Shown here: piece after piece, positions 7,826-31,839 of the stretch
How the letters are laid out: each line of letters starts with the position of its first letter
Numbering within the stretch: position 1 is the first letter of the stretch
From: an uncultured Pseudomonadota bacterium
GTDB lineage: Bacteria > Desulfobacterota > Syntrophorhabdia > Syntrophorhabdales > Syntrophorhabdaceae
NCBI GenBank assembly: GCA_937862865.1
Contig: CALMFJ010000073.1
Span: 1 to 48,709 of the forward strand
DNA length: 48,709 nucleotides
Reading direction: 5' to 3'
Position numbers and translations under genes: made by a program
The notes under the pieces: generated by a model
Databases searched by the model: none
What the model was told of the DNA's origin: nothing
The model's input: only the letters and a program-made list of their open reading frames with translations

Positions 7826-7827
7826 AC

Positions 7828-12840: not shown

Positions 12841-12881
12841 GATAACCTGCGGCAATCCCGCAAGAAAAGGAGGAGAACAAT

Positions 12882-14420: not shown

Positions 14421-14435
14421 AGATGGTGACCGGCA

Positions 14436-14485: not shown

Positions 14486-14526
14486 GCCAGGTTCACAGAT
14501 TCAAAAAATATACGGAGGAGATCGCA

Positions 14527-16370: not shown

Positions 16371-18245
16371 ATGAAGGTTGCGCTCGTTTCAATGCCGTGG
16401 TGCGATTTTGGCATGCCCTCGGCCGCATTGGGGGCTTTGTCCGCCTATATCCGCACCCGGATGCCCCATATAGGCCTTGCCTGCCACTCGGAGCATCTCG
16501 AGATATACAGGCGTCTCGGGGCTGACGCGTACCTTATTTTCCGCAATAACCGGGTCCTTGGTGAGGACCTCTATCTCTCGACCCTCTTTCCCGAATACCG
16601 CGCAGCCGTCAAAGGCGCCTTTGTCGAACGGGCCGTTGCCGGGGAAGGCGAAACACCCGGGACAGTTGAATTCGGCCGGTGCTGGGAGGAGGTTTTTGAA
16701 AGCGTTCGCGACCGCCTCCTGGAGCACCGGGACGCGGCGGCGCAGGCCCTCGCGGACGGTGCCGATGTCGTGGGGCTCACGACAAGTCTTGCCCAGACGT
16801 TTTCGAGCCTTTCACTTGCCCGCCGCATACGGGAGATATCACCCGACGTGCGCATCGTCCTCGGCGGGGCGGCGGTCGACGGTATGCGGGCCCGCGCGGT
16901 GCTGACCGAATTCCCGTTCGTCGATTACGTCATAGAGGGTGAAGGTGAAATTCCCTTCGAAAGGCTGTTGGCCGCCCTTGAAAAGGGCCATGATGCTGCT
17001 TCAGGGATACCCGGCGTCGTGACCCGGCTGAGCGGCCCGGGGCCCGGGCCGGTGAAGGTTCGCCGGGACGTGCCTGACCTCGATTCTCTGCCCATCCCTG
17101 ATTACGATGAATATGCGCAAAAGGCCGACGACCTGAGCATCATCTGGAATATACCCGTGGAAGGGTCGCGAGGATGCTGGTGGGACCGGACGGCGCGGAC
17201 GGGCAATCCGCTCGACCGGTGTTATTTCTGCAACTACGGGGGCCTGAAACCCCGGGACAAATCTCCCGCCCGCGTCGCCCGCGAGGTTGCCGTGCTTACC
17301 CGGCGCTATCGGAATGTCCGTGTTGCATTCTGCGAGAATGCCGTGCGCCCGCGGGGCATCCCGGAGCTGGCGCGGGCCCTTAAGAGGCGCAGGGGAGAGT
17401 TCTCGATATTCATGAGCCTCCGGGCCAACACGAAGGCGCGGGAGATCCTGGGCCTCTTTGAAGCCGGGATGATGCGCTGCGAATGCGGCATCGAGGGCTT
17501 CTCGAACGCATACCTTTCCCGGCTCAACAAGGGTACCACGGTAATACGCAACTTGCAGGTCTTGAGGGCCTGCCACGAACTGGGGATCTGGAACAACACG
17601 AACCTGATCGTCAACTTTCCCGGGGCAACCGATGCGGAGGTGGAGGAAACGGCGGCCGTGATCCGTGAGTACGCGTCGGCGTACCACCCGCCGGCAGCGA
17701 CGATCCCTTTCCAGCTTACGCCGGGGTGTGCCGTGGACGTGTTCCGGGAGAGGTACGGGATCGAAAATGTCCGCAATATCGTTGATTACGTGTGCGGCCT
17801 GCCGCCCGGGACGGGGGATGCCCTTATCCTGGCGGAACGCACCTTTGACGCGCCCGCACCGGTGGATTGGGGACCTGTCGAAAAGGCATGTGCCGACTGG
17901 CGCGACCTTCACGAGGCTTTAAGGAAAGATGATCGCTTCCCCGTGCCGTATCCCCTCTATTATCATGATGGCGGGGATTTTCTCGAGATAGTCGACAGGC
18001 GCAGCGGGTGCAGGACTGTAACGCTTCCCGGAGACTGGCGCCTGGTTTACCTCTTCTGCACGGAGATATGCACGGAAAAACAGATCGCCGGCCGCTTCCC
18101 GGAGACGGCGCCGCCGTTGGCCGAGATCCTGGAATGGCTTGTTTCGGAGAGGCTCATGTACCGGGAGGGGCGCCTGCACCTGTCTCTGGCGATAGCCTTA
18201 AGCCCGGCTCATGCGATGCGGCGAATGAAGGGCAGAAGGATATGA
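16371..18245 (+). CDS. B12-binding radical SAM protein, RiPP-maturation-like
   Basis: A 624-residue protein with a cobalamin-binding-type N-domain (MKVALVSMPWCDFGMPSAAL, then GLTTSL and IVLGGAAVDG around 140-170) and a radical SAM domain. Opening sequence and length resemble the 'RiPP maturation radical SAM protein 1' family (TIGR03975, recalled, not searched). The cluster cysteines after PVEGSRG are Cys269, Cys284 and Cys287, spacing CX14CX2C, longer than the usual CX3CX2C or the CX7CX2C I recall for this family. Enzymes of this class often methylate unactivated carbons. The start has no clear ribosome site and lies 18 bp after the small secreted protein gene, suggesting coupled translation. 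Confidence 0.82.
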   Translation: MKVALVSMPWCDFGMPSAALGALSAYIRTRMPHIGLACHSEHLEIYRRLGADAYLIFRNNRVLGEDLYLSTLFPEYRAAVKGAFVERAVAGEGETPGTVEFGRCWEEVFESVRDRLLEHRDAAAQALADGADVVGLTTSLAQTFSSLSLARRIREISPDVRIVLGGAAVDGMRARAVLTEFPFVDYVIEGEGEIPFERLLAALEKGHDAASGIPGVVTRLSGPGPGPVKVRRDVPDLDSLPIPDYDEYAQKADDLSIIWNIPVEGSRGCWWDRTARTGNPLDRCYFCNYGGLKPRDKSPARVAREVAVLTRRYRNVRVAFCENAVRPRGIPELARALKRRRGEFSIFMSLRANTKAREILGLFEAGMMRCECGIEGFSNAYLSRLNKGTTVIRNLQVLRACHELGIWNNTNLIVNFPGATDAEVEETAAVIREYASAYHPPAATIPFQLTPGCAVDVFRERYGIENVRNIVDYVCGLPPGTGDALILAERTFDAPAPVDWGPVEKACADWRDLHEALRKDDRFPVPYPLYYHDGGDFLEIVDRRSGCRTVTLPGDWRLVYLFCTEICTEKQIAGRFPETAPPLAEILEWLVSERLMYREGRLHLSLAIALSPAHAMRRMKGRRI

Positions 18246-18275: not shown

Positions 18276-19622
18276 CTAGCTGTCCTTTTTTATCCTGCTG
18301 TACAGTTTTTTCCTGCTGATCCCGAGGAGCCGGGCGGCTTCGGATTTATTCCCGTCAACCGAGGCGAGTACGCTGCGGATGTGTTCGTCCTCCATGCTGG
18401 AGAGGTCCACCGCGCCCGAGGGTGGGGCCTGGCTGACAGTGAGGGCCTCGGGTCGGATCTCCCTGAACAGGCTGTCGGCAAAATCCTCCGAGATTATCTC
18501 GGCCCGTTTCCCGCTGATCAAAACGGAGCGTTCGATCATGTTCACGAGCTCACGCACATTTCCCGGCCAATCGTATGTCATGAAGGTCTGGAAGGCCCGG
18601 CGCGAGAGACGTTTTTTTGCCCCGCCGCTGAATTTTTCGAGGAAATAGTCAACGAGGGGCGCTATGTCCTCTTTTTTGTCGCGCAGGGGCGGCATCGTTA
18701 CAACAAACGTGTTTATCCTGAAAAAGAGGTCGTTCCTGAAATTCTTCTCTTCGATCTCTTCCTTGAGGTCTTTGTTCGTCGCGAAGATGAAACGGACATC
18801 CACCTTTGTTTCCTTCGTGTCCCCGAGCTTCATGAATGTCCCGGTTTCGAGCACCCTCAGGAGCTTCGCCTGTATCGTGAGCCCCATGTCCCCTATCTCA
18901 TCGATGAACAGGGTCCCGTTGTTGGCGATATCGAGAAGGCCGAGCTTGTCTGTCTGTGCGCCGGTGAATGCCCCCTTTTTGTACCCGAAGAGCTCGCTTT
19001 CAAGGATCGTCTCCTGCAGGGCGCTCGAATTGATAGCGACAAAAGGGTGTCCGGCACGCGGGCTCTGATCGTGTATAGCGCGTGCGGCGACCTCCTTTCC
19101 CGTTCCGGTCTCCCCCTGGATCAGGACCGGGGTGCTCGAGGGGGCGACGATCGATATCAATCCCTTGACCTTCTTCATGGCCTTGCTTTCGCCGATGAAA
19201 TTGTCATGGGCCGCGACCCGCATGAGGTGTTCTTTGAGGACGAGGTTGTCTTCGGCAAGGGATTTCTTCTCCGCCGCCTTCGTTATGATCGCCGCAAGCT
19301 CGGATATCTTGCAGGGTTTGGTCAGATAGTCGTATGCCCCGAGCTTCATCGACCGGATGGCCGTGTCGACCGAGGCAAAGCCGGTCAGCATGATGACCTC
19401 GAGGACAGGCTCCACCTGTTTCATTTTGAGGAGAAGGTTCACGCCGTCGAGGTCGGGGAGCCTGATGTCGACGACCGCCACGTCGAACGATTGCTTCCTG
19501 AGTGCTGCCATGGCGTCCGCGGCGGTGTACACGCCCGACACCTTCATGCCTTCCTTCGTGAGCTGCATGATGAACGCCTCGACAAGCTTCGATTCATCAT
19601 CGACGACCAGCACTTTGATCAT
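18276..19622 (-). CDS. Sigma-54-dependent response regulator 2 (NtrC family)
   Basis: 448 residues: receiver domain with DDES and phospho-acceptor Asp52 (VDIRLPD), AAA+ domain with GETGTGKE, ESELFGYKKGAFTGAQTDK containing the sigma-54 contact loop, TLFIDEIGD, and a C-terminal Fis-type helix-turn-helix (NKSEAARLLGISRKKLY). It follows its kinase by 3 bp and is a clear paralogue of the regulator at 3378. It may control the sigma-54 promoter at 21666 next to this pair, and perhaps those at 4904 and 10932. Convergent with the radical SAM gene. Confidence 0.93.
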   Translation of the reverse strand: MIKVLVVDDESKLVEAFIMQLTKEGMKVSGVYTAADAMAALRKQSFDVAVVDIRLPDLDGVNLLLKMKQVEPVLEVIMLTGFASVDTAIRSMKLGAYDYLTKPCKISELAAIITKAAEKKSLAEDNLVLKEHLMRVAAHDNFIGESKAMKKVKGLISIVAPSSTPVLIQGETGTGKEVAARAIHDQSPRAGHPFVAINSSALQETILESELFGYKKGAFTGAQTDKLGLLDIANNGTLFIDEIGDMGLTIQAKLLRVLETGTFMKLGDTKETKVDVRFIFATNKDLKEEIEEKNFRNDLFFRINTFVVTMPPLRDKKEDIAPLVDYFLEKFSGGAKKRLSRRAFQTFMTYDWPGNVRELVNMIERSVLISGKRAEIISEDFADSLFREIRPEALTVSQAPPSGAVDLSSMEDEHIRSVLASVDGNKSEAARLLGISRKKLYSRIKKDS

Positions 19623-19625
19623 ACG

Positions 19626-21530
19626 TTATCCCCCGTCATCGCCTGCCGGCAGCGTCACGGTGAATGTTGTGCCGCTTCCCGGTTCGCTTTTTACGCTTAT
19701 CGTCCCGTTCATGCTCTTTAAGAATTCGAACGACAGGGACAGTCCGAGCCCGATCCCTTTCTCGGTCTCCTTTGTCGTGAAAAAGGGCTCGAATATCTTT
19801 TCAAGGATGGTCGGAGGTATCCCGATGCCGTTGTCGGCGACCTCGATAGTGATCATCCCGCCGTCGAAATATGTCCGCACCCAGATCGTTGCGTCCATCC
19901 TCCCCTCCACGGCATCCATCGCATTGTGTATCAGGTTGACGAGGACCTGGCGCAAGGCGCTCAAGTCGGCCCGGGCCGTCGGCAGGGAAGGCAGCAGTTC
20001 GCACTGGACAACTATCCCGCGTGAATCGAAATTGACGGACTCCACAATGATCTCGACCAGGTTGTTGGCATCGACGTTCACGATCTCGAGGCCGTCCTTG
20101 CGCGACAGGCTCAAGAGGTCGTTGATGACATTCTTGCAGCGGAACGCCTGTTGCTGGATGATATCGAGGCAGTAGGCAAGCTGCCCCGCGTCAAGGGGTG
20201 CATCACTTTTCTGCCTGTAGGACTGCACCATGTCCGTCGCTATCTCGGCAAACGCAACGAGCGTGGCAAGGGGGTTGTTGAGCTCGTGGGCCGCCCCCGC
20301 GGCGAGCCTCCCGATCGCGGATATCTTTGTGTCCTGCATGAGCTTGGCGCGCGTTTTCACCCGGTCCGTCGTCTCTTCAATGATGCACAAGAGGCCGTCT
20401 ATGGCGCCCGTCCGGCTGCGAAGCGGCACGCCCTTGAAGTCCATATAGATGCTCCGGTCGCCCTTGTATGTCATAAAGGGAAAGTCCCAGAGCTGGAACG
20501 GCTCCCCCTTGAGCCCTTTCTTGATATACTTTGCGAGCCCCGACTTAACGGTGTAAGCGTTGGTAAGCCAGTTGAAGCCGAGGAGTTTTTCCGCCGCCCG
20601 GTCGCCGAGGCCGGACAGTTCCGCCAACGCGGGGTTGACGCTCGTGAACCGGCCTTTTTTATCGAGAGTGAAGATGGCGACGGGGGCATTTTCGATGATC
20701 GCCTCGTTGAACTCGTTGAGGCTCCTCAACCTGTCGGCCGCCCTTTTTTGCTCCGTTATGTCCTCTATCGTCCCTTCGTAATACTTGGTCGAGCCGTCGG
20801 GGTTCCGGACCGCGCGGGCGTTCATGACGACCCAGAGTATGTCGCCGTTCTTTTTGTACAGCTGGCATTCAAAGCTCCGCGCAATACCTTCGCGCTCAAT
20901 GGTATTGATGAAGACCTGGCGATGCTCCGGGTTTACATAGTGCTGGTTTTTGAGGTCGGAGACGGACGCGATGTACTCCTCGGGGGAGCTGTAGCCAAGC
21001 ATTGTCGCAAGGGCCGGGTTCGAGGCGACCATCCTCCCGTCGACGGTCGTCTGGAAGATACCCTCTATCGCATTCTCGAAGATGCCGCGATAGAGCTGTT
21101 CCGCCTGCTTAATCATGAGATCGGACTGCTTCTTCTTCGTTATGTCGAGAAGCGTCCCGATGACCGCCGACCTGCCGTTGTACGTGGTGGCGTATCCGTA
21201 GGCCTCTATGTCGATGATGCCCCCGTCCTTCTTGACGCCTCTGAACTCATAATGGATGGATGGGAGCTTGCCCGCTATCCTGCGGTTGATATTTCCATCC
21301 ACGATCGGCCAATCTTCCGGGTAGACCAGACTCTCGGGGCCCATCCTGTCGATGATCTCATCGATGGAATATCCGAAGATCTGGCCCATCCTTTCGTTTG
21401 TGTACCGGAAGAGCTTGTCCTGGATCAGGTAGATGCCGACAAGTGATTTTTCAGCCAGGTCCCTGAACAGGCGCTCATTCCCATGGCTTTTGCCGGTTTT
21501 CGGTCGAGGGGCAGCACGTTTCGATGGCAT
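19626..21530 (-). CDS. Multi-PAS sensor histidine kinase 2
   Basis: About 634 residues with three PAS domains (about 20-130, 140-265 and 275-395), then a HisKA domain with AAGAAHELNNPLAT, an N-box (NLIHNAMDAV) and ATPase motifs DNGIGIPP and GIGLGLSL. No membrane segment is seen. Compared with the kinase at 1851 it has one extra PAS domain, while the last PAS and kinase core are closely related (KGVPLRSRTGAIDGLLCIIE against KGVPIKDKDGKVERLLCIIE). ATG 21530 is used; GTG 21551 is also in frame and neither has a good ribosome site. It is divergent from the Hdr/Etf operon, whose sigma-54 promoter lies in the shared 210-bp gap. Confidence 0.9.
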   Translation of the reverse strand: MPSKRAAPRPKTGKSHGNERLFRDLAEKSLVGIYLIQDKLFRYTNERMGQIFGYSIDEIIDRMGPESLVYPEDWPIVDGNINRRIAGKLPSIHYEFRGVKKDGGIIDIEAYGYATTYNGRSAVIGTLLDITKKKQSDLMIKQAEQLYRGIFENAIEGIFQTTVDGRMVASNPALATMLGYSSPEEYIASVSDLKNQHYVNPEHRQVFINTIEREGIARSFECQLYKKNGDILWVVMNARAVRNPDGSTKYYEGTIEDITEQKRAADRLRSLNEFNEAIIENAPVAIFTLDKKGRFTSVNPALAELSGLGDRAAEKLLGFNWLTNAYTVKSGLAKYIKKGLKGEPFQLWDFPFMTYKGDRSIYMDFKGVPLRSRTGAIDGLLCIIEETTDRVKTRAKLMQDTKISAIGRLAAGAAHELNNPLATLVAFAEIATDMVQSYRQKSDAPLDAGQLAYCLDIIQQQAFRCKNVINDLLSLSRKDGLEIVNVDANNLVEIIVESVNFDSRGIVVQCELLPSLPTARADLSALRQVLVNLIHNAMDAVEGRMDATIWVRTYFDGGMITIEVADNGIGIPPTILEKIFEPFFTTKETEKGIGLGLSLSFEFLKSMNGTISVKSEPGSGTTFTVTLPAGDDGG

Positions 21531-21665
21531 TGCATGAGAGTATACCACCACATCGTATCAAAAGGATACACTTGTCACCAAAAAAGACATATAATAAAGA
21601 GTTATAATTTCCGGACGGACATGGTAACGTGTGATAATGACTTGGTATTTATCGAAGCACCGCTT

Positions 21666-21740: not shown

Positions 21741-22835
21741 ATGCCTGAACAGACTGCAACGCGGGTCCTGACGTGCATCCAGTGCGGCAAATGCACGGGA
21801 GGATGCCCCGAATCCGGGAAGACACCCTTCAATGTCAGGATGCTCATGAGAAAAACCCAGTTCAAATCGGACATCGAAGAGTCGCTCCCCTGGTACTGTA
21901 CATCGTGCGGGGCATGTACGATCAGGTGCCCGCGGGATGTTAAGCCGTCCGAGGTCGTTATAGAGCTCAGGGCGAAACTGGTTGAGGACGGCGATATACC
22001 ACTGGCGTTGCAGAAGGCGCTCGAGAACACATTTGTTCAGAAGAACCCGTGGGGCCGCTCGCGCAACAAGCGCGCCGACTGGCTCGAGAAGCTCGATTTC
22101 GAGGTCCCGCATGTCTCCGGGACGGAAAGCAAGAGGCTCCTTTTCGTCTGCTGCATTCAGGCGTATGACCCCCGGTGCATGGTGATACCGGTCAATGTGG
22201 CGCGCCTTCTCAAGGCCGGCGGGATGGAATTCGGCGTGCTGGGGGAAGAGGAAGCCTGCTGCGGCAACGAGATACGGAGGATCGGCGAGTCGGGGCTTTT
22301 CGAGGAACTCCAGGAAGAGAACCTCGGGTCATTCACTGAGTATGGCGTTCAGGAAATAATTGCCCTGTCTCCCCATTGCATGAATGCCCTGAAGAAAGAA
22401 TACGGCGATACGGGCATAAAGGTTGTCCACTACACCGAGGTGCTCGCGAAGATGATCGCGGAGGGCAGCCTGTCGTTTCCCGGATCGTTCGAGAAAAAGG
22501 TGATCTATCACGATCCGTGCTTTCTCGGCAAACAGAACGGTATCTTCGATGAGCCGAGGGCCATCCTGAAGGCCGTGCCGGGCCTCGAGCTCCTCGAGTT
22601 CTCCCGCTCGCGCGAGACGTCGCTGTGCTGCGAAGGCGGGGGCGGCAGGATGTTCTTCGAGGTCGAAAGCGTCTACCAGCGCAACGCCGAGGTCCGGGTT
22701 ATCGACGCCGGGAAACGGGGGGCGGAGATCATAGCCGCCGCGTGCCCCTTCTGCGTCATGACGCTCGAGGACCCGGCGACCGAGAAAGGGCTCGTTGTCA
22801 AAGAGCTGTCAGAAATCTTGATGGAGGTCTTATAA
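21741..22835 (+). CDS. HdrC/HdrB-type Fe-S oxidoreductase (fused)
   Basis: 364 residues. An N-terminal ferredoxin domain carries two 4Fe-4S motifs: Cys12/15/18/22 and Cys53/56/59/63. Two CCG-type cysteine-rich domains follow (EEACCGNE, then YHDPCFLGKQNG ... SLCCEGGGGRMF ... ACPFCVM). This is the HdrC-HdrB arrangement seen in Fe-S oxidoreductases that accept electrons from Etf. It is first in a ten-gene operon and ends 1 bp before etfB, so it probably links the Etf to other carriers. CCG domains in HdrB hold noncubane 4Fe-4S clusters; that they do so here is inferred. No membrane helix is present. Confidence 0.87.
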   Translation: MPEQTATRVLTCIQCGKCTGGCPESGKTPFNVRMLMRKTQFKSDIEESLPWYCTSCGACTIRCPRDVKPSEVVIELRAKLVEDGDIPLALQKALENTFVQKNPWGRSRNKRADWLEKLDFEVPHVSGTESKRLLFVCCIQAYDPRCMVIPVNVARLLKAGGMEFGVLGEEEACCGNEIRRIGESGLFEELQEENLGSFTEYGVQEIIALSPHCMNALKKEYGDTGIKVVHYTEVLAKMIAEGSLSFPGSFEKKVIYHDPCFLGKQNGIFDEPRAILKAVPGLELLEFSRSRETSLCCEGGGGRMFFEVESVYQRNAEVRVIDAGKRGAEIIAAACPFCVMTLEDPATEKGLVVKELSEILMEVL

Positions 22836-22836
22836 A

Positions 22837-23616
22837 ATGAATATCCTTGTGTTTGCGAAGAGGGTTGCTGCAACCCAGGAAGAGGAGCTGAGGATCCGCG
22901 ACGAGGGCGCCGCGGTCGATCTCTCCAAGGTGCCGTTCAAGATCAACGACTGGGACAATTACTCGGTCGAAGAGGCCGTGAGGATCGTCGAGAAGACGGG
23001 CGGGACGGTCACCGCGATATCAATCGGTGACGCCGAATCCGACGAGGTCTTAAGGCGCGCCATTGCCATGGGCGCCAGGGACGGCTTCCTTGTCAGCTCC
23101 GGGGAGATATTCCACGATCCCGGCGTGCGCAGCCGCCTCATTCAGAATTTTATCCGGAAAGAGAATATACCCTTTGACGTCATCTTCACCGGTGTCCAGT
23201 CTGAAGACGACCAGTTCGGCTGCGTCGGCGGCATCCTGGGCGCCTGCCTCGGGCTGCCGTATTCCTCGATGGTCATCGGCATAGACGCCGTGGAGAAGGA
23301 CCACATGATCATCCGGCGGGAGCTCGAGGGCGGCCTGCAGGAGAGGGTGAAGATTGCGGTCCCGTGCGTTCTGTCGATACAGAGCGGCATCAACGAACCG
23401 CGGTATGTCTCGATCATGGGCATCCGCAAGGCGAGCAAGGTCGAGAGGAAGGTGTTCCAGGCTGCGGACTACGCGGCACCCGCATCCGCCGGGATCGAGG
23501 TCGTGCGGTGGACGTACCCGGAGAAGAAGGGAGGCGCGACGATGCTCACCGGCGAACTCGACACCGTGTGCGGCCAGCTTCTCGGCATACTCAAGGAGAA
23601 GGGGGTGTTCCAATGA
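22837..23616 (+). CDS. etfB: Electron transfer flavoprotein beta subunit
   Basis: 259 residues with the EtfB start MNILVFAKRVAATQEEELRI and the family pattern NDWDNYSVEEAVRIVEKTGG, ATSIGD-like AISIGDAESDEVLRRAIAMG, and TGVQSEDDQFGCVGGILGAC. EtfB with EtfA forms the heterodimer that takes electrons from acyl-CoA dehydrogenases. The stop overlaps the etfA start by 4 bp. Whether this Etf is of the bifurcating type cannot be decided by eye. The operon context with Hdr-like genes suggests transfer to, or coupling with, an Hdr complex. Confidence 0.93.
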   Translation: MNILVFAKRVAATQEEELRIRDEGAAVDLSKVPFKINDWDNYSVEEAVRIVEKTGGTVTAISIGDAESDEVLRRAIAMGARDGFLVSSGEIFHDPGVRSRLIQNFIRKENIPFDVIFTGVQSEDDQFGCVGGILGACLGLPYSSMVIGIDAVEKDHMIIRRELEGGLQERVKIAVPCVLSIQSGINEPRYVSIMGIRKASKVERKVFQAADYAAPASAGIEVVRWTYPEKKGGATMLTGELDTVCGQLLGILKEKGVFQ

Positions 23617-24536
23617 GTTACGCATTGATAATAGCTGAAGTGCGGCGCGGCGTGTTCGAAGAGAGAAACCTCGATTCGGCCGGCATTGCGGCCCTTCTCG
23701 GGAAGGAGGCGGTCATGCTCATCCCCGACGGGGCGTACGAGGCCGGGAACATCGCCGAGACCGTCGTGAAGGTCAAGGTCGCCGAAGAGGTTTTCCTGAA
23801 CCCGCTCAACCTGAAAAATATACTGGGCCAGGTCTTTGCCGCGCGCGGCAACCCGGACCTCATCGTGTTCACCCACTCCTCCTTCGGGATGGAATCCGCG
23901 GCATACACGGCGGGCGCCTTCGGGTTCCCGGTCGTGACCGATGTCAGCGGGTACGATAAGGAAAAGGGCGTTTTCCTCAAAAGCTATTACTCCGACAAGA
24001 TCTTCGGCGAGTTCAAGGCGAGCGGCGGGCCTGTTGTCATAAGCGTCCGCAGCGGAAGTTTCAAGGAGTTTGCCGTGGACAAGGCGGCAAAGGCCGAGGA
24101 GATGGAGGGCGCTGCCCCCGTCGAGACGCGGACGTTCGTCGAGTACGTCGAGGAAGAGAAGGCGGACGTCGACATCACGAAGGCGGATTTTCTCCTTTCC
24201 GTCGGCAGGGGCATCGGCAGCAAGGAAGAGATACCGGCATACGAAGACCTCGCCGGCAGGCTCAAGGCGGTGCTCTCCGGGTCGCGCCCGGTCATCGACA
24301 AGATGTGGCTTCCGAAGCCGCGCCAGGTCGGCACGTCGGGAAAGACCGTCAGGCCGAAGGTATACCTCGCCATGGGTATATCCGGGGCGTTTCAGCACAT
24401 AGCCGGCATGAAGGATTCCGAGTGCATCATAGCGGTCAACAAGGACACGGAGGCCCCGATCTTCCAGTACGCGCATTTCGGGATCATAGCCGATATCCAT
24501 AAGGTACGGGACAAACTGAAAGAGATCGTGGGGTAA
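23613..24536 (+). CDS. etfA: Electron transfer flavoprotein alpha subunit
   Basis: 307 residues. The C-terminal FAD domain is unmistakable: VGRGIGSKEE, SRPVIDKMWLP, RQVGTSGKTVRPKVYLAMGI, SGAFQHIAGM and AVNKDTEAPIF. The frame is open further upstream inside etfB, but ATG 23613 in the ATGA overlap gives the normal EtfA start MSYALIIAEVRRG. It partners EtfB and likely receives electrons from the acyl-CoA dehydrogenases in this window. The stop overlaps the next gene by 1 bp (TAATG). Confidence 0.94.
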   Translation: MSYALIIAEVRRGVFEERNLDSAGIAALLGKEAVMLIPDGAYEAGNIAETVVKVKVAEEVFLNPLNLKNILGQVFAARGNPDLIVFTHSSFGMESAAYTAGAFGFPVVTDVSGYDKEKGVFLKSYYSDKIFGEFKASGGPVVISVRSGSFKEFAVDKAAKAEEMEGAAPVETRTFVEYVEEEKADVDITKADFLLSVGRGIGSKEEIPAYEDLAGRLKAVLSGSRPVIDKMWLPKPRQVGTSGKTVRPKVYLAMGISGAFQHIAGMKDSECIIAVNKDTEAPIFQYAHFGIIADIHKVRDKLKEIVG

Positions 24537-25840
24537 TGGACCATAGCGATAAAAATGTGCTTGTCGTGGGCGGAGGGATCGGCGGGATAACCGCCGCCCT
24601 CGAGCTCGCCTCGTGCGGCATTAAAGTAACAATGCTCGAGTCCGGCCCGTCTATCGGCGGCAGGATGATCCAGCTTGACAAGACATTCCCGACGCTCGAC
24701 TGCTCGACATGCACGCTGTCACCGAAAATGGTGGAGGTTGCCCTCAACCACAACATCGACCTCATGAGCGTGTCGCAGATAACGCACATGACACGCAAAG
24801 GCCCGGGGTTTTTGGTCGGGATAAAGAAGAATCCCCGCTACGTCGATCAGGATAAGTGCACCGCCTGCGGGTCCTGCGCCGAGGCCTGTGTGATGAAAGG
24901 CAGGGTGCCGCACGAATTCAACATGCTGCTCGGGAAGAGGGCGGCGATCTATATACCCTTTCCCCAGGCCATACCCCAGAAATACCTCGTCGATCCGGAA
25001 AGGTGCCTCTTCGTTTCCCGGGGCAAGTGCAAGAAGGCCTGCATGGACGCGTGCGAAACGGGCGCGATCAATTTCGATGACACGGGCGAAGAGTTCGAAA
25101 TGTATTTCGACAGCATCGTTCTCGCTCCCGGCTTCGACGTCTATGACCCGACCGAGAAGCAGGAGCTGGGCTACGGGACCCTGCCCGGGGTCGTGACGGG
25201 CCTCGAATTCGAAAGGATCTGCTCGGTCACCGGACCGACGGCCGGGGACATACTTCTCGACGGGAAAGAACCGAAACGCTTTTACTTTATCCAGTGCGTC
25301 GGCTCGCGGGACCGTCAGAGCGGCGCGCGGTACTGCTCGCGCGTCTGCTGCATGTACACGGCGAAGCATGCGTGCATCGTCCGGGAACGGATAAAAGACG
25401 CCGAGATCTACATATCCTATATCGACGTCAGGGCGTACGGTAAGGGGTACGACGAGTTCTACAAGACGACGCAGGAGAACGGGGCCCTGTACATCAGGGG
25501 CATTCCCGGAGAGGTTGTGGAAGGTGACGGATGTCTCATTGTTCGGGTTGAAGACATGCTGTCGGGGGAGATGCGGGAGATAGAGGCGGACATGGTCGTC
25601 CTTGCGACGGGTGTACGGCCGCGCAAAACGACCGGCGTGTTATGCGACATTTTATCTATCGATCGCGATGAATACGGCTTCATCAAGGTGGATGCGGTCA
25701 CGCCGTCGCTGACGAATGCTGACGGCATCTTTGTGTGCGGCATGGGTTCGGGCCCGAAGGACGTTCCCGACACCGTCGCCTCGGGAGGAGAAGCCGCGTC
25801 GCGCTGCATGGAATATATAGCGAAGGGTGCCGGTTCATGA
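24536..25840 (+). CDS. HdrA/QmoA-like flavin Fe-S protein 1
   Basis: 434 residues. An N-terminal FAD-binding fold (VVGGGIGGITAALELASCGI) is followed by the HdrA-type pair C56-STC59 in DCSTCTLSPKM, a 4Fe-4S motif Cys108/111/114/118 and a further set Cys157/165/169/173. Later comes the conserved CVGSRD ... YCSRVCCMYTAKHA region. The length and lack of the HdrA N-terminal and C-terminal ferredoxin parts make it most like QmoA of the Qmo complex. It is coupled to etfA (1-bp overlap) and to the next hdrA-like gene (4-bp overlap). Likely a subunit that passes electrons between flavin and Fe-S clusters in a soluble complex. Confidence 0.85.
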   Translation: MDHSDKNVLVVGGGIGGITAALELASCGIKVTMLESGPSIGGRMIQLDKTFPTLDCSTCTLSPKMVEVALNHNIDLMSVSQITHMTRKGPGFLVGIKKNPRYVDQDKCTACGSCAEACVMKGRVPHEFNMLLGKRAAIYIPFPQAIPQKYLVDPERCLFVSRGKCKKACMDACETGAINFDDTGEEFEMYFDSIVLAPGFDVYDPTEKQELGYGTLPGVVTGLEFERICSVTGPTAGDILLDGKEPKRFYFIQCVGSRDRQSGARYCSRVCCMYTAKHACIVRERIKDAEIYISYIDVRAYGKGYDEFYKTTQENGALYIRGIPGEVVEGDGCLIVRVEDMLSGEMREIEADMVVLATGVRPRKTTGVLCDILSIDRDEYGFIKVDAVTPSLTNADGIFVCGMGSGPKDVPDTVASGGEAASRCMEYIAKGAGS

Positions 25841-27510
25841 AAATAGGAGTATTTATCTGCCATTGCGGGCACAATATCAAGCATACGGTCGACGTCGAGA
25901 CGTTGGCCGAATATTTCAGGAAATACCCGCATGTTGCCGTGTCCGATGATTACCCGTTCCTGTGTTCCGAGCCGGGGCAGAATATGATAACGGACAGCAT
26001 CGAGCAGCATGGCCTCGACCGGGTGATCGTCGCCTCGTGCGCCCCTTCCCTGCATGGCGAACTTTTCAAGGACCTTTTAAGGAAAAAGGGAGTGAACCCC
26101 TTCCTCCTGCGCCGTGTCAGCATCCGGGAACATTGCAGCTGGGTCGGCGACGACGTCGAAGAGAACACGGAGAAGGCGAAACGCCTTATTCTGTCGGGGC
26201 TCTACGGCTCCGCGCATTACGTTCCCCTGGAAGAGAAGCAGGTCGAGGTCAACAAATCCGCCCTTATCCTCGGCGGCGGCGTTTCGGGCCTCAGTGCCGC
26301 GCTTTTTCTCTCCAATATGGGAATGCAGGTCTATCTCGTCGAACAGGCGGCCGAACTTGGCGGTCGCGTCCGGGAACTCAAAAGCGTATGGCCTTCACGC
26401 AAGGCGGGGGCCGATATAATCGCCGGGATGGAAAATGAGCTCAGGGGCCGCGATAATGCCGCGGTCTTCACCTCGTCGAAGCTTTCGAATTTCGAAGGTT
26501 TTTTCGGGAACTACCAGGCGACCGTCGCTACCCCGGACGGCGAAGAAAGGTTCGCGGTGGGAGGGGTGGTCGTCGCTATAGGCTTCGAACCGTTCGACCC
26601 GCAGATAAAGCCGGAACTCTTCTACGGCAGGGACCCGCGTATCGTGACGACCCTCGATCTCGAGCGGTCGGGTGACGGCCTCAAGCTTCCCGACAACCCC
26701 CGGGTAGCGGTCCTCCATTGCGTGGGGTCGAGGGACGAGCAGATCGGCAGGCCGTACTGCTCGCGCATATGCTGCATCAATGCCCTTCGGGCCGCGGAAG
26801 CCGTCAAGGAGAGGTTCGACGGTTCCTACGTGGAATCTTTTTATATGGACATGCGCGCCCACCCGCGGGGAGGTGAGGAATTTTTCGAGGATACGCAGGA
26901 AAAGGGCGTTCTCTTCACGCGCGGCAATATCGCGGAGATCGTGCCCGAGCCGCAGGGCATCGTGGTTCGCGGCGAGGATACCCTGTTCGGGGAGGTCTTT
27001 GAACGCGAGTTTGACCTCGTGGTCCTGTCCATTGGGATGTCGGCGCCGGCCACGGGCAAAGAGGTGGCCAACCTTCTCAAGATCAGCCTCGACAAGGACA
27101 ACTTCTTCCTCGAGGCGCATATCAAGCTGCGCCCTTTCGATACGGCCGTGAAAGGCATCTTCATAGCGGGCTCCTGTTCGGGCCCCAAGGATGTCGAGGA
27201 ATCGATAAACCACGGCAGGGCGTCGGCCCTCAAGCTTTACGGTTTTCTCAATCTCGGGTATGCGTTCGTCGATCCGTTCATCTCGGTCGTCGACCCGAAG
27301 CGGTGCAGCGGATGCCGGGTGTGCGAGCAGGCGTGCGTGGCCAGGGCGATCAAGTTCGACGAGGAAAAGCATATCGCGCACGTCGAAGAGGCGGCCTGCA
27401 TGGGATGCGGATTGTGCAACGCTACGTGCCCGTCATCCGCGATCAGCCTGAGGGGATATGTGGATACGGTCATCGCGGATGAAATAAGCGGCCTTCTGGA
27501 GGCAATGTGA
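25837..27510 (+). CDS. hdrA: HdrA-like flavin Fe-S protein 2 (QmoB-like)
   Basis: 557 residues starting MKIGVFICHCGHNI, the standard HdrA N-terminus, with VASCAPSLHGELF. An FAD fold follows (LILGGGVSGLSAALFLSNMG, near 147), then LHCVGSRDEQIGRPYCSRIC, and two C-terminal 4Fe-4S motifs (RCSGCRVCEQAC and CMGCGLCNATC). The cysteine insert found after the FAD site in HdrA1 is absent, so the two proteins are complementary. ATG 25837 overlaps the previous stop by 4 bp. With the separate MvhD gene next to it, the pair looks like a split QmoB (HdrA fused to MvhD). Likely the flavin centre of an Hdr-type complex. Confidence 0.87.
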   Translation: MKIGVFICHCGHNIKHTVDVETLAEYFRKYPHVAVSDDYPFLCSEPGQNMITDSIEQHGLDRVIVASCAPSLHGELFKDLLRKKGVNPFLLRRVSIREHCSWVGDDVEENTEKAKRLILSGLYGSAHYVPLEEKQVEVNKSALILGGGVSGLSAALFLSNMGMQVYLVEQAAELGGRVRELKSVWPSRKAGADIIAGMENELRGRDNAAVFTSSKLSNFEGFFGNYQATVATPDGEERFAVGGVVVAIGFEPFDPQIKPELFYGRDPRIVTTLDLERSGDGLKLPDNPRVAVLHCVGSRDEQIGRPYCSRICCINALRAAEAVKERFDGSYVESFYMDMRAHPRGGEEFFEDTQEKGVLFTRGNIAEIVPEPQGIVVRGEDTLFGEVFEREFDLVVLSIGMSAPATGKEVANLLKISLDKDNFFLEAHIKLRPFDTAVKGIFIAGSCSGPKDVEESINHGRASALKLYGFLNLGYAFVDPFISVVDPKRCSGCRVCEQACVARAIKFDEEKHIAHVEEAACMGCGLCNATCPSSAISLRGYVDTVIADEISGLLEAM

Positions 27511-27529
27511 CTTTAGCGGCAGAGGTATT

Positions 27530-27940
27530 ATGATGGAAGAAAAGATCGAAAAAAACCCTGAGATCGTCGGGTTCGCCTGTTCGTACTGCACGTTCAAGGC
27601 ATCGGAGATGGCGGGAAGCCTGAGGATGAAGTATCCCGAGGGGGTCAAACTCATCCAGGTCCCCTGCTCGAGCAGGGTCGACCCGGCGTTCGTCATAAAG
27701 GCAATTCTGGAGGGCGCCGACGGGGTTTTTGTCGCGGGGTGCCACCCGGGCGACTGCCATTTCATAAAAGGCAATTTTTTCACGCGCAGGAAAATCGCGG
27801 CCCTCAAGGAGATGCTCGACGCCTTCGGAATGAAGGACAGGCTCCGTTTATTCTGGGTAAGCGCCGCCGAGGCGCGGCGTTTCATCGAAAAGGTCACGGG
27901 AATGTACAACGAGATAAAGGAAAAGAAAAATGGTGGGTAA
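27530..27940 (+). CDS. mvhD: MvhD/FlpD-like 2Fe-2S delta subunit
   Basis: 136 residues. The family core is plain: FACSYCTFKASEMAGSLRMK, VPCSSRVDP and GADGVFVAGCHPGDCHF. MvhD carries a 2Fe-2S cluster and moves electrons between a hydrogenase or formate dehydrogenase and HdrA. No catalytic hydrogenase or formate dehydrogenase subunit is encoded in the window. A second ATG lies three bases after the first (27530/27533). The last 11 bp overlap the next gene. Confidence 0.9.
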   Translation: MMEEKIEKNPEIVGFACSYCTFKASEMAGSLRMKYPEGVKLIQVPCSSRVDPAFVIKAILEGADGVFVAGCHPGDCHFIKGNFFTRRKIAALKEMLDAFGMKDRLRLFWVSAAEARRFIEKVTGMYNEIKEKKNGG

Positions 27941-28931
27941 GAAGGTCACGAACGGTCAGATCGAAAGTGCGCTCAACACGTTTCTCGCCGCCGGCGATTG
28001 CCTTGTCCTGGGTTTCGAGAAAGACGGCACGGCAATGCGCCACCGGGTTTTCAAGAACACACTCGAGAACATGTCGGTTACCAACCATATCTTTGCCCTG
28101 AACGGGGGAATTTACCTGCGGCGCCTTTTTTCGAAGGGCGCGAAGATAATCCTTCTGCTTCGGCCATGCGAGATACGGTCGTACGTGGAACTGGTAAAAC
28201 TCTCCCAGATCGAGGCGGAGAACATCATCGCAGTGTCGGTCGACTGTTCCGGGACGATATCGTCAAAAGCGGACGATGTCCCGGTGGACGGGGGATATGA
28301 TGTCCTGTCACAGGACCCGGGCAGGGCGCGCTTTGCGTGCGCCAACTGCCGCGAGAGAAGGGGCGTCGTCGGCGATGCGGGGATACGGCGGGATGTGAAC
28401 GGCCAATACTGGGTGCTGCCCTACACGGAAAAGGGCGGCACGTTCCTTGCGCTTATCGAAGGCCCCGAAGAGGAAGTGAGCGCGCACATGGCGGTCCCGG
28501 CGGCCGGGAAAGGGGCCGTTTTCCAGGTCGATATGGCCGAATTTGCAAAGGACTTCTCCAGGTGCATCATGTGCATGAACTGCAGGGACATGTGCCCGGT
28601 CTGTTACTGCGTCGATTGTGTTTTTAACGGGGACGATTATCTGCCGAAGGGTGATGCGCTTTTCAACAAGATCTTCCGGACCGGCTCGACCGAGATGCCG
28701 CGCGGCAGGGACCTGTTCCACCTCATCAGGATGTACCACGTGTCGCAGACGTGCGTCGGGTGCGGCGCCTGCGAGGAGGCCTGCCCCCAGGGCATACCCC
28801 TTACGAAATACTTCAAAGGCGTATCGGAGAGGCTTCAGGGAATGTTTGCATACATGTCCGGGCGAAGCCCCGAAGAACCTCTGCCGTTCGTCACATTTCT
28901 TGAGGATGAATTGAAAGATGCCGCAGATTGA
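27930..28931 (+). CDS. FdhB/FrhB-like dicluster Fe-S protein
   Basis: 333 residues. The N-terminal 200 residues resemble the beta subunits of F420-hydrogenase and formate dehydrogenase (GAKIILLLRPCEIRSYVELV, then AVSVDC). Two cysteine-rich sets follow: CIMCMNCRDMCPVCYC (from about 212) and CVGCGACEEACPQG (from about 275), indicating two 4Fe-4S clusters. In related operons such proteins connect a formate dehydrogenase or NAD(P)H module to Hdr/MvhD. Here it has no catalytic partner next to it. It overlaps mvhD by 11 bp and hdrC by 14 bp, so it is firmly part of the operon. The exact electron donor or acceptor is unknown. Confidence 0.78.
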   Translation: MVGKKVTNGQIESALNTFLAAGDCLVLGFEKDGTAMRHRVFKNTLENMSVTNHIFALNGGIYLRRLFSKGAKIILLLRPCEIRSYVELVKLSQIEAENIIAVSVDCSGTISSKADDVPVDGGYDVLSQDPGRARFACANCRERRGVVGDAGIRRDVNGQYWVLPYTEKGGTFLALIEGPEEEVSAHMAVPAAGKGAVFQVDMAEFAKDFSRCIMCMNCRDMCPVCYCVDCVFNGDDYLPKGDALFNKIFRTGSTEMPRGRDLFHLIRMYHVSQTCVGCGACEEACPQGIPLTKYFKGVSERLQGMFAYMSGRSPEEPLPFVTFLEDELKDAAD

Positions 28932-29376
28932 TCACGCCATAGAATTGACTGATTACAGGAGGCAGGATTTTTCCGTGTGCCTCGGATGCAAGATCTGTGC
29001 GTCCGTGTGCACGGTCAATGACATTACGGGGAACACAAATCCCCAGGACATGCTCCAGAGGATATTCCTCGGCAAAGATATATCGGCCGATGAGCCGCTC
29101 GTCAGGTCCTGTACGGGGTGTTACCGGTGTACCGGGGCCTGCCCGTGGGAGATACGGATACCGGATGTCATCCGGGCGCTGCGTCATGAGCTAAATGTCG
29201 AATCACCGTTCGAAAAGGCATTCAAGGGATCGGTCTCGCTCTTCGGCAGGGTTTATGAGCCGTATGTCCTGATGAAAGCGGTGCCTTTTCTCATCAGGGG
29301 CGGATACATGCAGCATGTAACGCGATGGATGGAATACATGGGATTTCACCTGCCGCACAGGGTCAAAAGGACATAA
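28918..29376 (+). CDS. hdrC: Heterodisulfide reductase subunit C-like protein
   Basis: 152 residues with two 4Fe-4S motifs, CLGCKICASVCTVND (from about 21) and CTGCYRCTGACPWEIRIPDV, in the HdrC spacing. HdrC passes electrons between HdrA and HdrB. The C-terminal part (FKGSVSLFGRVYEPYVLMKA) lacks clear membrane helices, so it should be soluble, unlike QmoC. It overlaps the previous gene by 14 bp and is 1 bp from hdrB. Confidence 0.88.
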   Translation: MPQIDHAIELTDYRRQDFSVCLGCKICASVCTVNDITGNTNPQDMLQRIFLGKDISADEPLVRSCTGCYRCTGACPWEIRIPDVIRALRHELNVESPFEKAFKGSVSLFGRVYEPYVLMKAVPFLIRGGYMQHVTRWMEYMGFHLPHRVKRT

Positions 29377-29377
29377 G

Positions 29378-30058
29378 ATGGAATACGGTTATTATCCCGG
29401 CTGTTCGCTTACCGGGTCGGCACGCAAGCTTGATAAGGGCATACGGCAGATATTTGCCAGGGCAGGGCACACGATGAAAGAGATCCCGGATTGGAACTGC
29501 TGCGGCGCATTCGAGTACGGCGACCGGAAGGAACTGGTCAATTTCTCGAAGAAGAACCTCGAAAAGGCACGGGGGCATTTTCATGATATCGTTACACCGT
29601 GCCCGGCGTGCTATAAGAACCTCAAAGAGGCGGACGAGGCGTACGAGTTCGGCGTCATTCACCCGCTCGATGTCTTCGACGAGTCATTTTTCCAATGGAC
29701 GAAGCAGGCGCGGGACCTTGCAGGGCAGGTCTTCACCCCCTATTACGGGTGCATCCTGCTGCGCCCGAAGGAGACCGCGATACGCAACAAGACCATCATG
29801 GAAGAAACGATCGTCCGGTTTGGCGGCGAGGTCGCCGGAGAGGCGGCAAAGGACCGCTGCTGCGGCGGGAACCAGATATTCATCGATAAATCCGTTACCG
29901 AGAAGCTTTCCCGCATCATCCTGGAGAAGTCGAGGGGGACGCTCGTCGTGTTCTGTCCCCTGTGCCACATGGCGCTGAAAACCTTTTCGGGGGAACGGAA
30001 GGTCATCTATTTCACGGACCTCCTCCTTTATATTATGGGAGAGAAGGGCGCATTATGA
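29378..30058 (+). CDS. hdrB: Heterodisulfide reductase subunit B-like protein (short)
   Basis: 226 residues with both CCG domains: YYPGCSLTGSA, DWNCCGAFEYG and TPCPACYKN in the first; PYYGCILLRP, DRCCGGNQIF and VFCPLCHMAL in the second. HdrB holds the noncubane clusters that reduce disulfides in methanogens; in bacteria the substrate is usually unknown. At 226 residues it is shorter than archaeal HdrB (about 290), mostly in the region between the domains. The stop overlaps the next start by 4 bp. It is a second CCG protein in the operon, in addition to the fused HdrC/B at 21741. Confidence 0.88.
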   Translation: MEYGYYPGCSLTGSARKLDKGIRQIFARAGHTMKEIPDWNCCGAFEYGDRKELVNFSKKNLEKARGHFHDIVTPCPACYKNLKEADEAYEFGVIHPLDVFDESFFQWTKQARDLAGQVFTPYYGCILLRPKETAIRNKTIMEETIVRFGGEVAGEAAKDRCCGGNQIFIDKSVTEKLSRIILEKSRGTLVVFCPLCHMALKTFSGERKVIYFTDLLLYIMGEKGAL

Positions 30059-31839
30059 ACGTTCTGATAATTGGCGGAGGCATAAGCGGGGTATCGGCGG
30101 CCAAGGTCGTCCTGAAGGAGGGGCACAGCGCGGTCATACTCGAGAGCACCCCCGAACTCGGCGGGACGATGGCGCGCATCGCCAATTGCCGCATCGGGTT
30201 CAAGACATTCTATGACGAGATAAAGGACGACCCTCGCCTTCGCGTTGTCAGGGGCGCCTCTATCGCGGATGTGAAAAAGGCCGGGGACGGGTTTTCCGTG
30301 ACGCTCACGAATGGTGAAGCCTCAGGCTTCGACAGGGTCATCGTGGCCGCCGGCCTTTCGCCCTATGACCCCGTGGAATACAAGGGGAAACGGGTCCTGA
30401 CGAGCCTCGAATATGACGCGAAGATCGACCAGCGCAACGGTGAACTGCCGGAGGATTTCGAAAAGATAGGGTTTTTCCTCTGCGTCGGCTCGCGGTCGAA
30501 GGAATACCCGCTGTGTTCGTCTGTGTGCTGTTCATACACGATACGCGAGGTCAAGTGGACGCTCCAGCGCGCGAAGCCGGAGATAGCCGTATTTTACAAC
30601 GACCTGCGCCTCTTCGGGCAGGAATTTTACCTCGAGAAGATCTACCGTGACGCCGGCGTCCGTTTTGTCCGGGCGAATTCCCGCTACTTTGAGGAAGATG
30701 AGACCGGCGTCACGGTCCGCTACTTCGTCGACGGGGAATTGAAGGAAGAGCGGTTCAACTATGTCGTCCTCGCCATAGGCCTGCGCCCGAACCCGGGCAT
30801 GAAGGACCTGGGCGCCCTGTTCGGTTTCTCCGTCAACGAGTACGGGTTCGCCGCGGAAAGGTCCCCGCTCGCAACCGATGCCGACGGTGTGTTCGCGTGC
30901 GGCGGGGCCCTTGAGCCCATGAATATCAAGGATTCCATCCTGACAGGCTTCGGCGCCGGCGTGCTGGCCGTCCGTGACGCCGAGGCCCTCATCGCCGAGG
31001 GCCGGGATCAGGGCCTCTTGCGGGATGAAGACCCCCCGGGGATAACGATGCCGCAGGGCACTTTTTCGTCCTGCGCCTTTTATCTCGGCACCGACGACCC
31101 CGGTGAAGCAATGTTCTACGAATACATGTCCGCGCGCTTCATCGAGGCGGCACGGACATTGAACGAGGCCGGAAAGACCGTGTATGTCGTAACGAAGAAC
31201 ATCGTGATGCCGTCGTACGACGAGGTGACCTTTGAAAAGGCCCGCCGGGAAGGGGTCGTCATCATCAACCTCGAGGAAAACCAGTCCTTTGTTCCCCAAA
31301 ACGGCGGTTTCGCGGTCACGGGCGGGGGAAAGGACCTTGCTTTCGACGCTGACCACATCATTTATTTCAAGGATTATGCCGGCAGTTTCGCGGGACGCGA
31401 ATTTCTTTCCGTCCATCGTTCGGAGCCCCAGCTTCGCTGGAACCCGACGCGCTGGAGCCGCAAAAAATATCACGTCGGGTTTCTGCGCCATCCGCGCGAT
31501 AAACGCTGGAAGCCGCGCGAGATCTTAGGCGCTGTGGGTGAGATCATTCTCGACAGGGAAGAAGAGCGCCTTTACCCGACGATAGAGGAAGAGCGATGCA
31601 GCGGCTGCGGTTCGTGCATGGATGCCTGCCCCCAGAAGGCCATAGAAATAAAAGTCGCCGATACAGAGGTTTCGGTCTTTGGCCCGATAAGCAATACCGG
31701 CATCCCGAAAGCGCACATAAATGAAGACTCCTGCGTGGCCTGCGGCCTGTGCGCATCCACCTGCCCGTCAGACGTGATAAAACTGCCGGAACAGGAACAG
31801 AAGATACCGAACTGTACGGCAATAGACAATAGGCGATAG
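30055..31839 (+). CDS. HdrA-like flavin Fe-S protein 3 with extra middle region
   Basis: 594 residues. FAD site IIGGGISGVSAAKVVLKEGH at the N-terminus, LCVGSRSKEYPLCSSVCCSY in the middle and two C-terminal 4Fe-4S motifs (CSGCGSCMDAC near 515, CVACGLCASTC near 561). Residues of about 335-500 form an additional segment (TFSSCAFYLGTDDPGEAM onward) seen in some HdrA-related proteins; I do not know its role. It lacks the HdrA N-terminal domain. ATG 30055 is inside the end of hdrB (4-bp overlap). The last seven residues (TAIDNRR) and the TAG stop are encoded by heptad repeats, so the natural C-terminus may have been replaced. Confidence 0.84.
   Translation: MNVLIIGGGISGVSAAKVVLKEGHSAVILESTPELGGTMARIANCRIGFKTFYDEIKDDPRLRVVRGASIADVKKAGDGFSVTLTNGEASGFDRVIVAAGLSPYDPVEYKGKRVLTSLEYDAKIDQRNGELPEDFEKIGFFLCVGSRSKEYPLCSSVCCSYTIREVKWTLQRAKPEIAVFYNDLRLFGQEFYLEKIYRDAGVRFVRANSRYFEEDETGVTVRYFVDGELKEERFNYVVLAIGLRPNPGMKDLGALFGFSVNEYGFAAERSPLATDADGVFACGGALEPMNIKDSILTGFGAGVLAVRDAEALIAEGRDQGLLRDEDPPGITMPQGTFSSCAFYLGTDDPGEAMFYEYMSARFIEAARTLNEAGKTVYVVTKNIVMPSYDEVTFEKARREGVVIINLEENQSFVPQNGGFAVTGGGKDLAFDADHIIYFKDYAGSFAGREFLSVHRSEPQLRWNPTRWSRKKYHVGFLRHPRDKRWKPREILGAVGEIILDREEERLYPTIEEERCSGCGSCMDACPQKAIEIKVADTEVSVFGPISNTGIPKAHINEDSCVACGLCASTCPSDVIKLPEQEQKIPNCTAIDNRR

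What the first reader, a model, noticed from the sequence alone, without database searches (positions are those of the whole stretch)
21741..31839. Ten-gene Etf-Hdr operon with three HdrA-like proteins and no catalytic hydrogenase
EtfBA is embedded between a fused HdrC/B-like protein and a full soluble Hdr set (HdrA-like x3, MvhD, FdhB-like, HdrC, HdrB). All ten genes overlap or nearly touch. Etf-Hdr coupling could let electrons from acyl-CoA oxidation reach low-potential carriers, a key problem in syntrophy. No hydrogenase or formate dehydrogenase catalytic subunit is encoded in the window, so the terminal partner is unknown.
Basis: partly seen in the sequence, partly recalled or inferred. 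Interest (0 to 1): 0.72.

Follow-up and report, generated by a model that had tools for sequence, protein, structure and literature searches.

The report
Soluble Etf–Hdr electron-transfer gene cluster
Ten neighbouring genes, kept in the same order throughout one order of uncultured anaerobic bacteria, appear to build a soluble enzyme that takes electrons from fatty-acid-type substrates and passes them through a methanogen-like Hdr core, which may explain how these anaerobes handle electrons that are energetically hard to get rid of.

Summary
Ten co-directional genes (21741-31839; gaps -14 to +19 nt) encode an HdrCB fusion, EtfB, EtfA, two complementary HdrA proteins, MvhD, FdhB-like, HdrC, HdrB and a third, divergent HdrA. 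The order is identical in 31 complete loci from three families of the same order (identity down to about 48% for the least conserved subunit), while flanking genes change. A dedicated EtfB is present in 36 of 37 good-quality genomes of the order. The cluster was not seen in other families sampled. Fe-S cysteines are essentially invariant. g1 resembles the soluble part of EtfD, but is nearest to BamD and has no membrane domain. g5-g6-g7 match the HdrA-MvhD-FdhB arm of Fdh-Hdr and Elp-Hdr. Relatives partly answer the 'missing partner': in 27 of 34 loci the first HdrA carries an NfnB/GltD-like NAD(P)H module (HdrL type). The window's copy is the plain form, and gene trees suggest in-place exchange of the two. 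The genome encodes several [FeFe]-hydrogenases and a selenocysteine formate dehydrogenase elsewhere. Best reading: a soluble Etf:Hdr bifurcating/confurcating complex, a new variant of known modules. Activity and physical association are untested.

The parts
21741..22835 (+). g1: fused HdrC/HdrB-like Fe-S protein (364 aa), soluble, EtfD/BamD family; two [4Fe-4S] motifs, one complete CCG motif (C260, C296-C297, C335xxC338) and one atypical CCG motif
   Evidence: Pfam CCG and Fer4; best PDB match mycobacterial EtfD 9ojn_A, E=5e-53; ~39% to the BamD-like gene next to BamBC-like genes in the same genome; 19 Cys invariant in 32 loci
22837..23616 (+). g2: EtfB (259 aa), most divergent of the genome's four EtfB; lacks the CarD-type beta-FAD loop
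   Evidence: Pfam ETF; best PDB match ETF of Methylophilus W3A1 1o94, E=1e-37, ahead of the bifurcating Etfs; alignment; four Etf pairs in the genome
23613..24536 (+). g3: EtfA (307 aa) with the alpha-FAD domain
   Evidence: Pfam ETF_alpha and ETF
24536..25840 (+). g4: HdrA core with inserted two-cluster ferredoxin domain, lacking N- and C-terminal domains (434 aa, 'plain' form); in most relatives carries an NfnB/GltD-like insert of ~440-470 aa (HdrL form)
   Evidence: NCBIfam HdrA2 positions 139-563; PDB HdrA 8rvv_A residues 140-564; insert in relatives
25837..27510 (+). g5: HdrA with N-terminal domain, flavin core and C-terminal two-cluster ferredoxin domain, lacking the inserted ferredoxin domain (557 aa)
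   Evidence: PDB 5odc_A residues 5-234 and 320-648; NCBIfam
27530..27940 (+). g6: MvhD/FlpD (136 aa), five invariant or near-invariant Cys
   Evidence: Pfam FlpD E=1e-43
27930..28931 (+). g7: FdhB/ElpB-like Fe-S protein (333 aa), 15 invariant Cys
   Evidence: PDB 9t1s_M, 7bkb_E, 8rvu_E; Foldseek top matches 7bkb_E and 8rvu_E
28918..29376 (+). g8: HdrC-like, two [4Fe-4S] motifs (152 aa)
   Evidence: Pfam and NCBIfam
29378..30058 (+). g9: HdrB-like, two complete five-Cys CCG motifs (226 aa)
   Evidence: Pfam CCG; PDB HdrB; C9/41-42/75/78 and C125/161-162/193/196 invariant in 37 loci
30055..31839 (+). g10: third, divergent HdrA-like protein (594 aa): HdrA-type flavin domain, a middle domain with no Pfam match, C-terminal 2x[4Fe-4S]
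   Evidence: PDB 5odc_A; Foldseek top match 6tjr_A sHdrA plus archaeal HdrA, model pLDDT 83

Best explanation
The ten genes encode one soluble electron-transfer complex in which a dedicated EtfBA hands electrons to (or takes them from) acyl-CoA dehydrogenases. It exchanges them through g1, a soluble EtfD/BamD-type HdrCB fusion, with a heterodimeric HdrA core (g4 + g5). The HdrA flavin couples three potentials: Etf/acyl-CoA (high), the g5 terminal domains-MvhD-FdhB arm (middle), and ferredoxin at the inserted ferredoxin domain of g4 (low), or NAD(P)H where g4 is the NfnB-fused HdrL form. g8/g9 (HdrCB) and g10 form a second HdrCB arm, possibly for a disulfide or protein partner. In fatty-acid or other acyl-CoA oxidation it would run as confurcation (Etf-red plus Fd-red to NAD(P)H, feeding formate or H2 production); in reverse, as bifurcation. 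Shown: gene content, order, conservation, cofactor motifs, fold matches, HdrA/HdrL exchange. Inferred: that all ten form one complex, the electron path and the direction.
For: Identical ten-gene order in 31 complete loci across three families while the flanks change; dedicated single-copy EtfB in 36/37 good genomes of the order; invariant Fe-S ligands in every subunit. g1's best solved relative is EtfD, the Etf:menaquinone oxidoreductase, but with no membrane domain and nearer to BamD, which in these genomes sits in BamB-BamC-BamD-HdrA clusters. HdrA functions are split: g5 has the terminal domains that carry the MvhD/FdhB arm in Elp-Hdr (PMC12350162) and g4 the inserted ferredoxin domain. g7 = FdhB/ElpB. 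NAD(P)H module in 27/34 g4. g2 lacks the bifurcating-type EtfB loop, so the HdrA flavin is the likelier bifurcation site. Acyl-CoA dehydrogenases, acyl-CoA ligases or TRAP transporters like the window's lie beside about half of the loci.
Against: No biochemistry and no complex prediction. Gaps are larger in some relatives (g5-g6 up to 557 nt), so translational coupling is not universal across g5-g6. HdrA cofactor binding was judged from motifs only. The genome also has a membrane EtfD-type protein (710-aa frame on C20) and three other Etf pairs, so this is not the only Etf outlet. The neighbour association with acyl-CoA genes has no background control.
Confidence: 0.55

Rival explanations
1. 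Two machines in one operon: EtfBA-g1 is an Etf oxidoreductase, and g4-g10 is a separate FdhB-MvhD-HdrABC bifurcating complex. They share electrons only through diffusible carriers.
For: g1-g2-g3 are always tightly coupled (median gaps 1 and -4), as are g6-g7 and g7-g8 in most loci, while the g5-g6 gap varies up to 557 nt. EtfBA beside an HdrD/HdrF-type protein alone is known (hdrF3-etfBA in D. autotrophicum, PMC2702500), and separate EtfBA-EMO loci exist in this order.
Against: The two halves never separate in the 31 complete loci although the flanks reshuffle. g1 is soluble and would have no quinone outlet of its own.
Confidence: 0.25
2. Disulfide route without bifurcation: Etf electrons pass via g1 and the HdrA relay to g8/g9 HdrCB, which reduces a protein or low-molecular disulfide, as proposed for DsrC with Flx-Hdr.
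For: g9 keeps both complete five-Cys CCG motifs, as in catalytic HdrB.
Against: DsrC (PF04358) was not found in the window genome, nor in G002, G004, G008 and G009 of the genus. Three flavin-type HdrA plus an FdhB/MvhD arm or an NfnB module would be superfluous.
Confidence: 0.12
3. Aromatic-ring reduction accessory: a Bam-like DEF module that serves a BamBC-type benzoyl-CoA reductase, with Etf as its high-potential partner.
For: g1 is ~39% identical to a BamD-like protein, and these genomes hold BamB-C-D-HdrA clusters.
Against: No BamBC-like gene in any of the ten-gene loci; BamB clusters in the same genomes have their own BamD and HdrA.
Confidence: 0.08

Closest known systems
FdhAB-MvhD-HdrABC and ElpABC-HdrABC of methanogens (PDB 7bkb, 8rvu; PMC12350162)
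   Same: HdrA, MvhD, FdhB, HdrC, HdrB modules; g5-g6-g7 reproduces the donor arm
   Different: No FdhA or ElpA; HdrA split into two complementary proteins plus a third; EtfBA and g1 added
EtfD/EMO/FadF/HdrF membrane Etf:menaquinone oxidoreductases (PMC13083937; D. autotrophicum hdrF3-etfBA, PMC2702500)
   Same: Adjacent EtfBA; HdrCB-type Fe-S region of the same family
   Different: g1 begins at its Fe-S domain, has no membrane/heme domain, and has Ser where EtfD has Cys581; electrons would enter a soluble Hdr core
BamDEF module of class II benzoyl-CoA reductase
   Same: BamD-like protein with HdrA and MvhD
   Different: No BamB or BamC; EtfBA instead. Bam comparison beyond the BamB-C-D-HdrA order seen here rests on recalled knowledge
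HdrL (HdrA/glutamate-synthase-type fusion) of Desulfobacterium autotrophicum (PMC2702500)
   Same: The fused g4 form of most relatives has the same type of NAD(P)H-module fusion
   Different: The window's g4 is the plain form; HdrL was described with MvhD and Dsr or FdhB genes, not in this ten-gene set
Bcd-EtfAB, CarCDE (bifurcating Etf complexes)
   Same: Etf linked to acyl-CoA redox chemistry
   Different: Bifurcating flavin there is in EtfB; g2 lacks the CarD loop and lies nearer to W3A1 ETF
FlxABCD-HdrABC and MetFV-HdrABC-MvhD
   Same: Bacterial Hdr core adapted to a different partner
   Different: No FlxABC or MetFV; partner is Etf

Membership tests
HdrABC flavin-based bifurcating complexes | HdrA flavin domain with its conserved four-Cys cluster motif | tested here: met
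   present in g4, g5, g10; Cys invariant
HdrABC flavin-based bifurcating complexes | N-terminal, inserted ferredoxin and C-terminal ferredoxin domains in HdrA | tested here: met
   met only jointly: inserted domain in g4, N- and C-terminal domains in g5
HdrABC flavin-based bifurcating complexes | HdrC with two [4Fe-4S] motifs and HdrB with two five-Cys CCG motifs | tested here: met
   g8 and g9, invariant ligands
HdrABC flavin-based bifurcating complexes | bifurcation/confurcation activity | not testable with these tools
   needs enzyme assay
EtfD/EMO membrane Etf:quinone oxidoreductase | N-terminal membrane domain with b heme | tested here: not met
   g1 is 364 aa and its first cluster Cys is residue 12; only the soluble region of EtfD aligns
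EtfD/EMO membrane Etf:quinone oxidoreductase | D1 cluster ligands Cys503/538/581/584 and D2 ligands | tested here: not met
   D2 ligands kept; Cys581 is Ser210 in g1, as in the BamD-like proteins; extra Cys137 and Cys174
Class II benzoyl-CoA reductase Bam complex | BamB (AOR family) and BamC encoded with the module | tested here: not met
   absent from the operon; a separate BamB-C-D set lies on C15
Fdh-Hdr / Elp-Hdr | FdhB + MvhD + HdrA donor arm | tested here: met
   g5-g6-g7
Fdh-Hdr / Elp-Hdr | FdhA or ElpA subunit encoded with it | tested here: not met
   none in the window; FdhA-type fragments on C109/C155
HdrL (NAD(P)H-module HdrA fusion) | NfnB/GltD-like domain inside HdrA | tested here: not met
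   absent in window g4 and six relatives; present in 27 of 34
Bifurcating Etf (CarDE/Bcd-Etf type) | EtfB binding a second FAD | tested here: inconclusive
   CarD loop DGDTAQVG replaced by EDDQFGCV; nearest solved EtfB is W3A1; no structure or binding test

The most novel reading that the evidence does not exclude
An asymmetric Hdr complex: a g4/g5 HdrA heterodimer carries two different HdrCB arms, the fused g1 arm docking Etf and the g8/g9 arm docking another acceptor. Its low-potential port is interchangeable in evolution between a ferredoxin port (plain HdrA) and an NAD(P)H port (NfnB-fused HdrL) by in-place gene replacement. It would be a soluble, Hdr-based acyl-CoA:ferredoxin:NAD(P)H oxidoreductase, a type not described in the papers searched.
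Probability: 0.35. Interest if true: 0.8.

Novelty: new variant of a known kind. Interest (0 to 1): 0.62.

Why it matters
How anaerobes re-route electrons from acyl-CoA oxidation (about -10 mV for crotonyl-CoA/butyryl-CoA, PMC5861303) to H2, formate or NAD(P)H is an open question, and the usual answer is membrane reverse electron transport through EtfD/EMO. A conserved, fully soluble Etf-Hdr unit would be a second answer, with a natural comparison between ferredoxin-type and NAD(P)H-type versions in sister species.

Tried and rejected
Naming the order: the genome-contig scan gave 'Deltaproteobacteria' titles only for the close relatives (UBA5329, Ja1-D5_bin-237, RA.bin14) and no paper names those records; not pursued. 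Calling g1 a plain EtfD: best solved match, but signature residues and identity place it nearer BamD, and the tree gives four separate clades. Loss of the NfnB insert from the window's g4: rejected as the simplest account, because window g4 groups outside its own genus' fused forms in the g4 tree but inside the genus in the tree of six other operon genes, and it has a canonical HdrA-like segment at the insert site. DsrC as partner: not found in this genome. Rnf: no RnfC over cut-off in the genus. Paper searches for 'Etf-Hdr' type names found nothing; the library lacks most subscription journals. The Syntrophorhabdus aromaticivorans genome paper and the HdrA(BC) review of Appel et al. were seen only as references in other papers, not read.
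Full report
Check of the observation. The ten open reading frames are present on the + strand between 21741 and 31839, with distances of -14 to +19 nt after choosing homology-supported starts. PDB comparisons sharpen this: g4 aligns with archaeal HdrA residues 140-564; g5 aligns with HdrA residues 5-234 and 320-648; g7 with FdhB of Fdh-Hdr and ElpB of Elp-Hdr, which are also its best fold matches (model mean pLDDT 72.5, C-terminal third low); g10 with HdrA-like folds.

It is conserved. In 60 relatives, full-length or split g10 orthologues occur in the window's genus, in all twelve other genera sampled in its family and in two further families of the same order, and not in the 16 more distant genomes of the phylum. 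I fetched the loci: 31 complete loci have g1-g10 in the same order and strand, with identity down to about 48% for the least conserved subunit in the most distant family. A dedicated EtfB orthologue is found once per genome in 40 of 46 genomes of the order, and in 36 of 37 that are at least 90% complete with at most 5% contamination. Among 395 genomes drawn from the phylum, g7 relatives of about 48% identity or more over the full length occur only in this order; the next full-length ones are 38% or less and sit in other Hdr loci. Neighbouring genes change between loci, but acyl-CoA dehydrogenases, acyl-CoA ligases or TRAP transporters related to the window's own recur beside about half of them; no background control was available. 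Every Fe-S cysteine of g1, g7 and g9, and nearly every one of the other subunits, is invariant in 32-37 loci.

What g1 is. Its best solved relative is mycobacterial EtfD (9ojn, E=5e-53), the membrane Etf:menaquinone oxidoreductase whose soluble part is homologous to HdrBC (PMC13083937). But g1 begins at its Fe-S domain, so has no membrane part; it has Ser in place of EtfD Cys581 while keeping the ligands of the noncubane cluster; and within its own genome its nearest paralogue (~39%) is a 383-388 aa protein encoded next to an AOR-family BamB-like and a BamC-like protein. In a tree, g1, BamD-like, EMO/EtfD and a fourth group are each one clade. The genome also has a membrane-type EtfD homologue (710-aa frame on contig C20) and four Etf pairs in all.

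The missing partner. In 27 of 34 loci, g4 is about 900 aa: a Fer4_20 + Pyr_redox_2 domain of the NfnB/GltD type sits inside the HdrA, at the second cluster of the inserted ferredoxin domain, and nearly all carry a GGGN...YRR..EMPA motif, which by recalled knowledge of GltD/NfnB points to NADP(H). This is the HdrL type named in Desulfobacterium autotrophicum (PMC2702500). The window's g4, and those of G009, G015, G022, G030, G038 and G040, are the plain form. Fused forms are one clade in the g4 tree (100/100), yet on a tree of six other operon genes the two forms need four changes, and the window nests among fused members of its own genus. The simplest reading is in-place replacement of g4 between lineages.

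Genome context. The window genome has seven [FeFe]-hydrogenase-domain matches, pieces of a TGA-containing FDH-type subunit on C155 and C109, no [NiFe]-hydrogenase beyond a weak NuoD-like hit, no DsrC and no RnfC over cut-off. C155 also holds MvhD- and HdrA-like frames next to the FDH fragment, so FDH-Hdr coupling may exist elsewhere in this genome. The assembly is fragmented, so absence is not proof.

Mechanism. In Elp-Hdr and Fdh-Hdr, FdhB/ElpB and MvhD ride with the terminal domains of HdrA, and the inserted ferredoxin domain is where polyferredoxin docks (PMC12350162). Here those two halves are on different proteins, g5 and g4, which suggests an HdrA heterodimer. Canonical Hdr is an (HdrABC)2 dimer, so two different HdrCB arms, g1 and g8/g9, could attach. 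Etf would enter at g1. g2 lacks the loop of bifurcating CarD and is nearer to W3A1 ETF, so the bifurcating flavin is more likely in HdrA. These last steps are inference.

Novelty. Separate pieces are known: HdrL, HdrF-EtfBA, Fdh-Hdr, Elp-Hdr, Bam. The ten-gene combination was not found in the open-access papers searched, with the limits of that library. I rate it a new variant of a known kind.

Noticed in passing
window 18276-21551 (-) and 1716-4733 (+): Two PAS-domain sensor kinase / sigma-54-type response-regulator pairs; relatives of the divergent pair flank the ten-gene cluster in several other genomes.
   Followed up: partly
window 4952-15669: TRAP transporter (DctPQM-like), two acyl-CoA ligases, two acyl-CoA dehydrogenases and a sodium:solute symporter; a likely source of electrons for the cluster.
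   Followed up: partly
window 42775-46506 (-): Three-gene molybdenum hydroxylase of the xanthine dehydrogenase type (large, Fe-S, FAD subunits), judged from sequence only.
   Followed up: no
window 16371-18245 and 39690-41519: Two B12-binding radical-SAM-like proteins, judged from sequence only.
   Followed up: no
L098 (genome G080, another family of the phylum): An EtfA gene next to a 780-aa CCG protein with a cytochrome c7 match, HdrA, and two FdhB-MvhD sets around a 1016-aa HdrA: a second, different Etf-Hdr neighbourhood.
   Followed up: partly
L104 (G000 contig C113): 1477-aa HdrA with NfnB/GltD-like domain beside HdrB and HdrC in the window's own genome: an HdrL-type complex separate from the ten-gene cluster.
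   Followed up: partly
L021-L057, g4: g4 gene tree conflicts with the other operon genes; in-place exchange of plain HdrA and NfnB-fused HdrL inside an otherwise fixed operon.
   Followed up: yes
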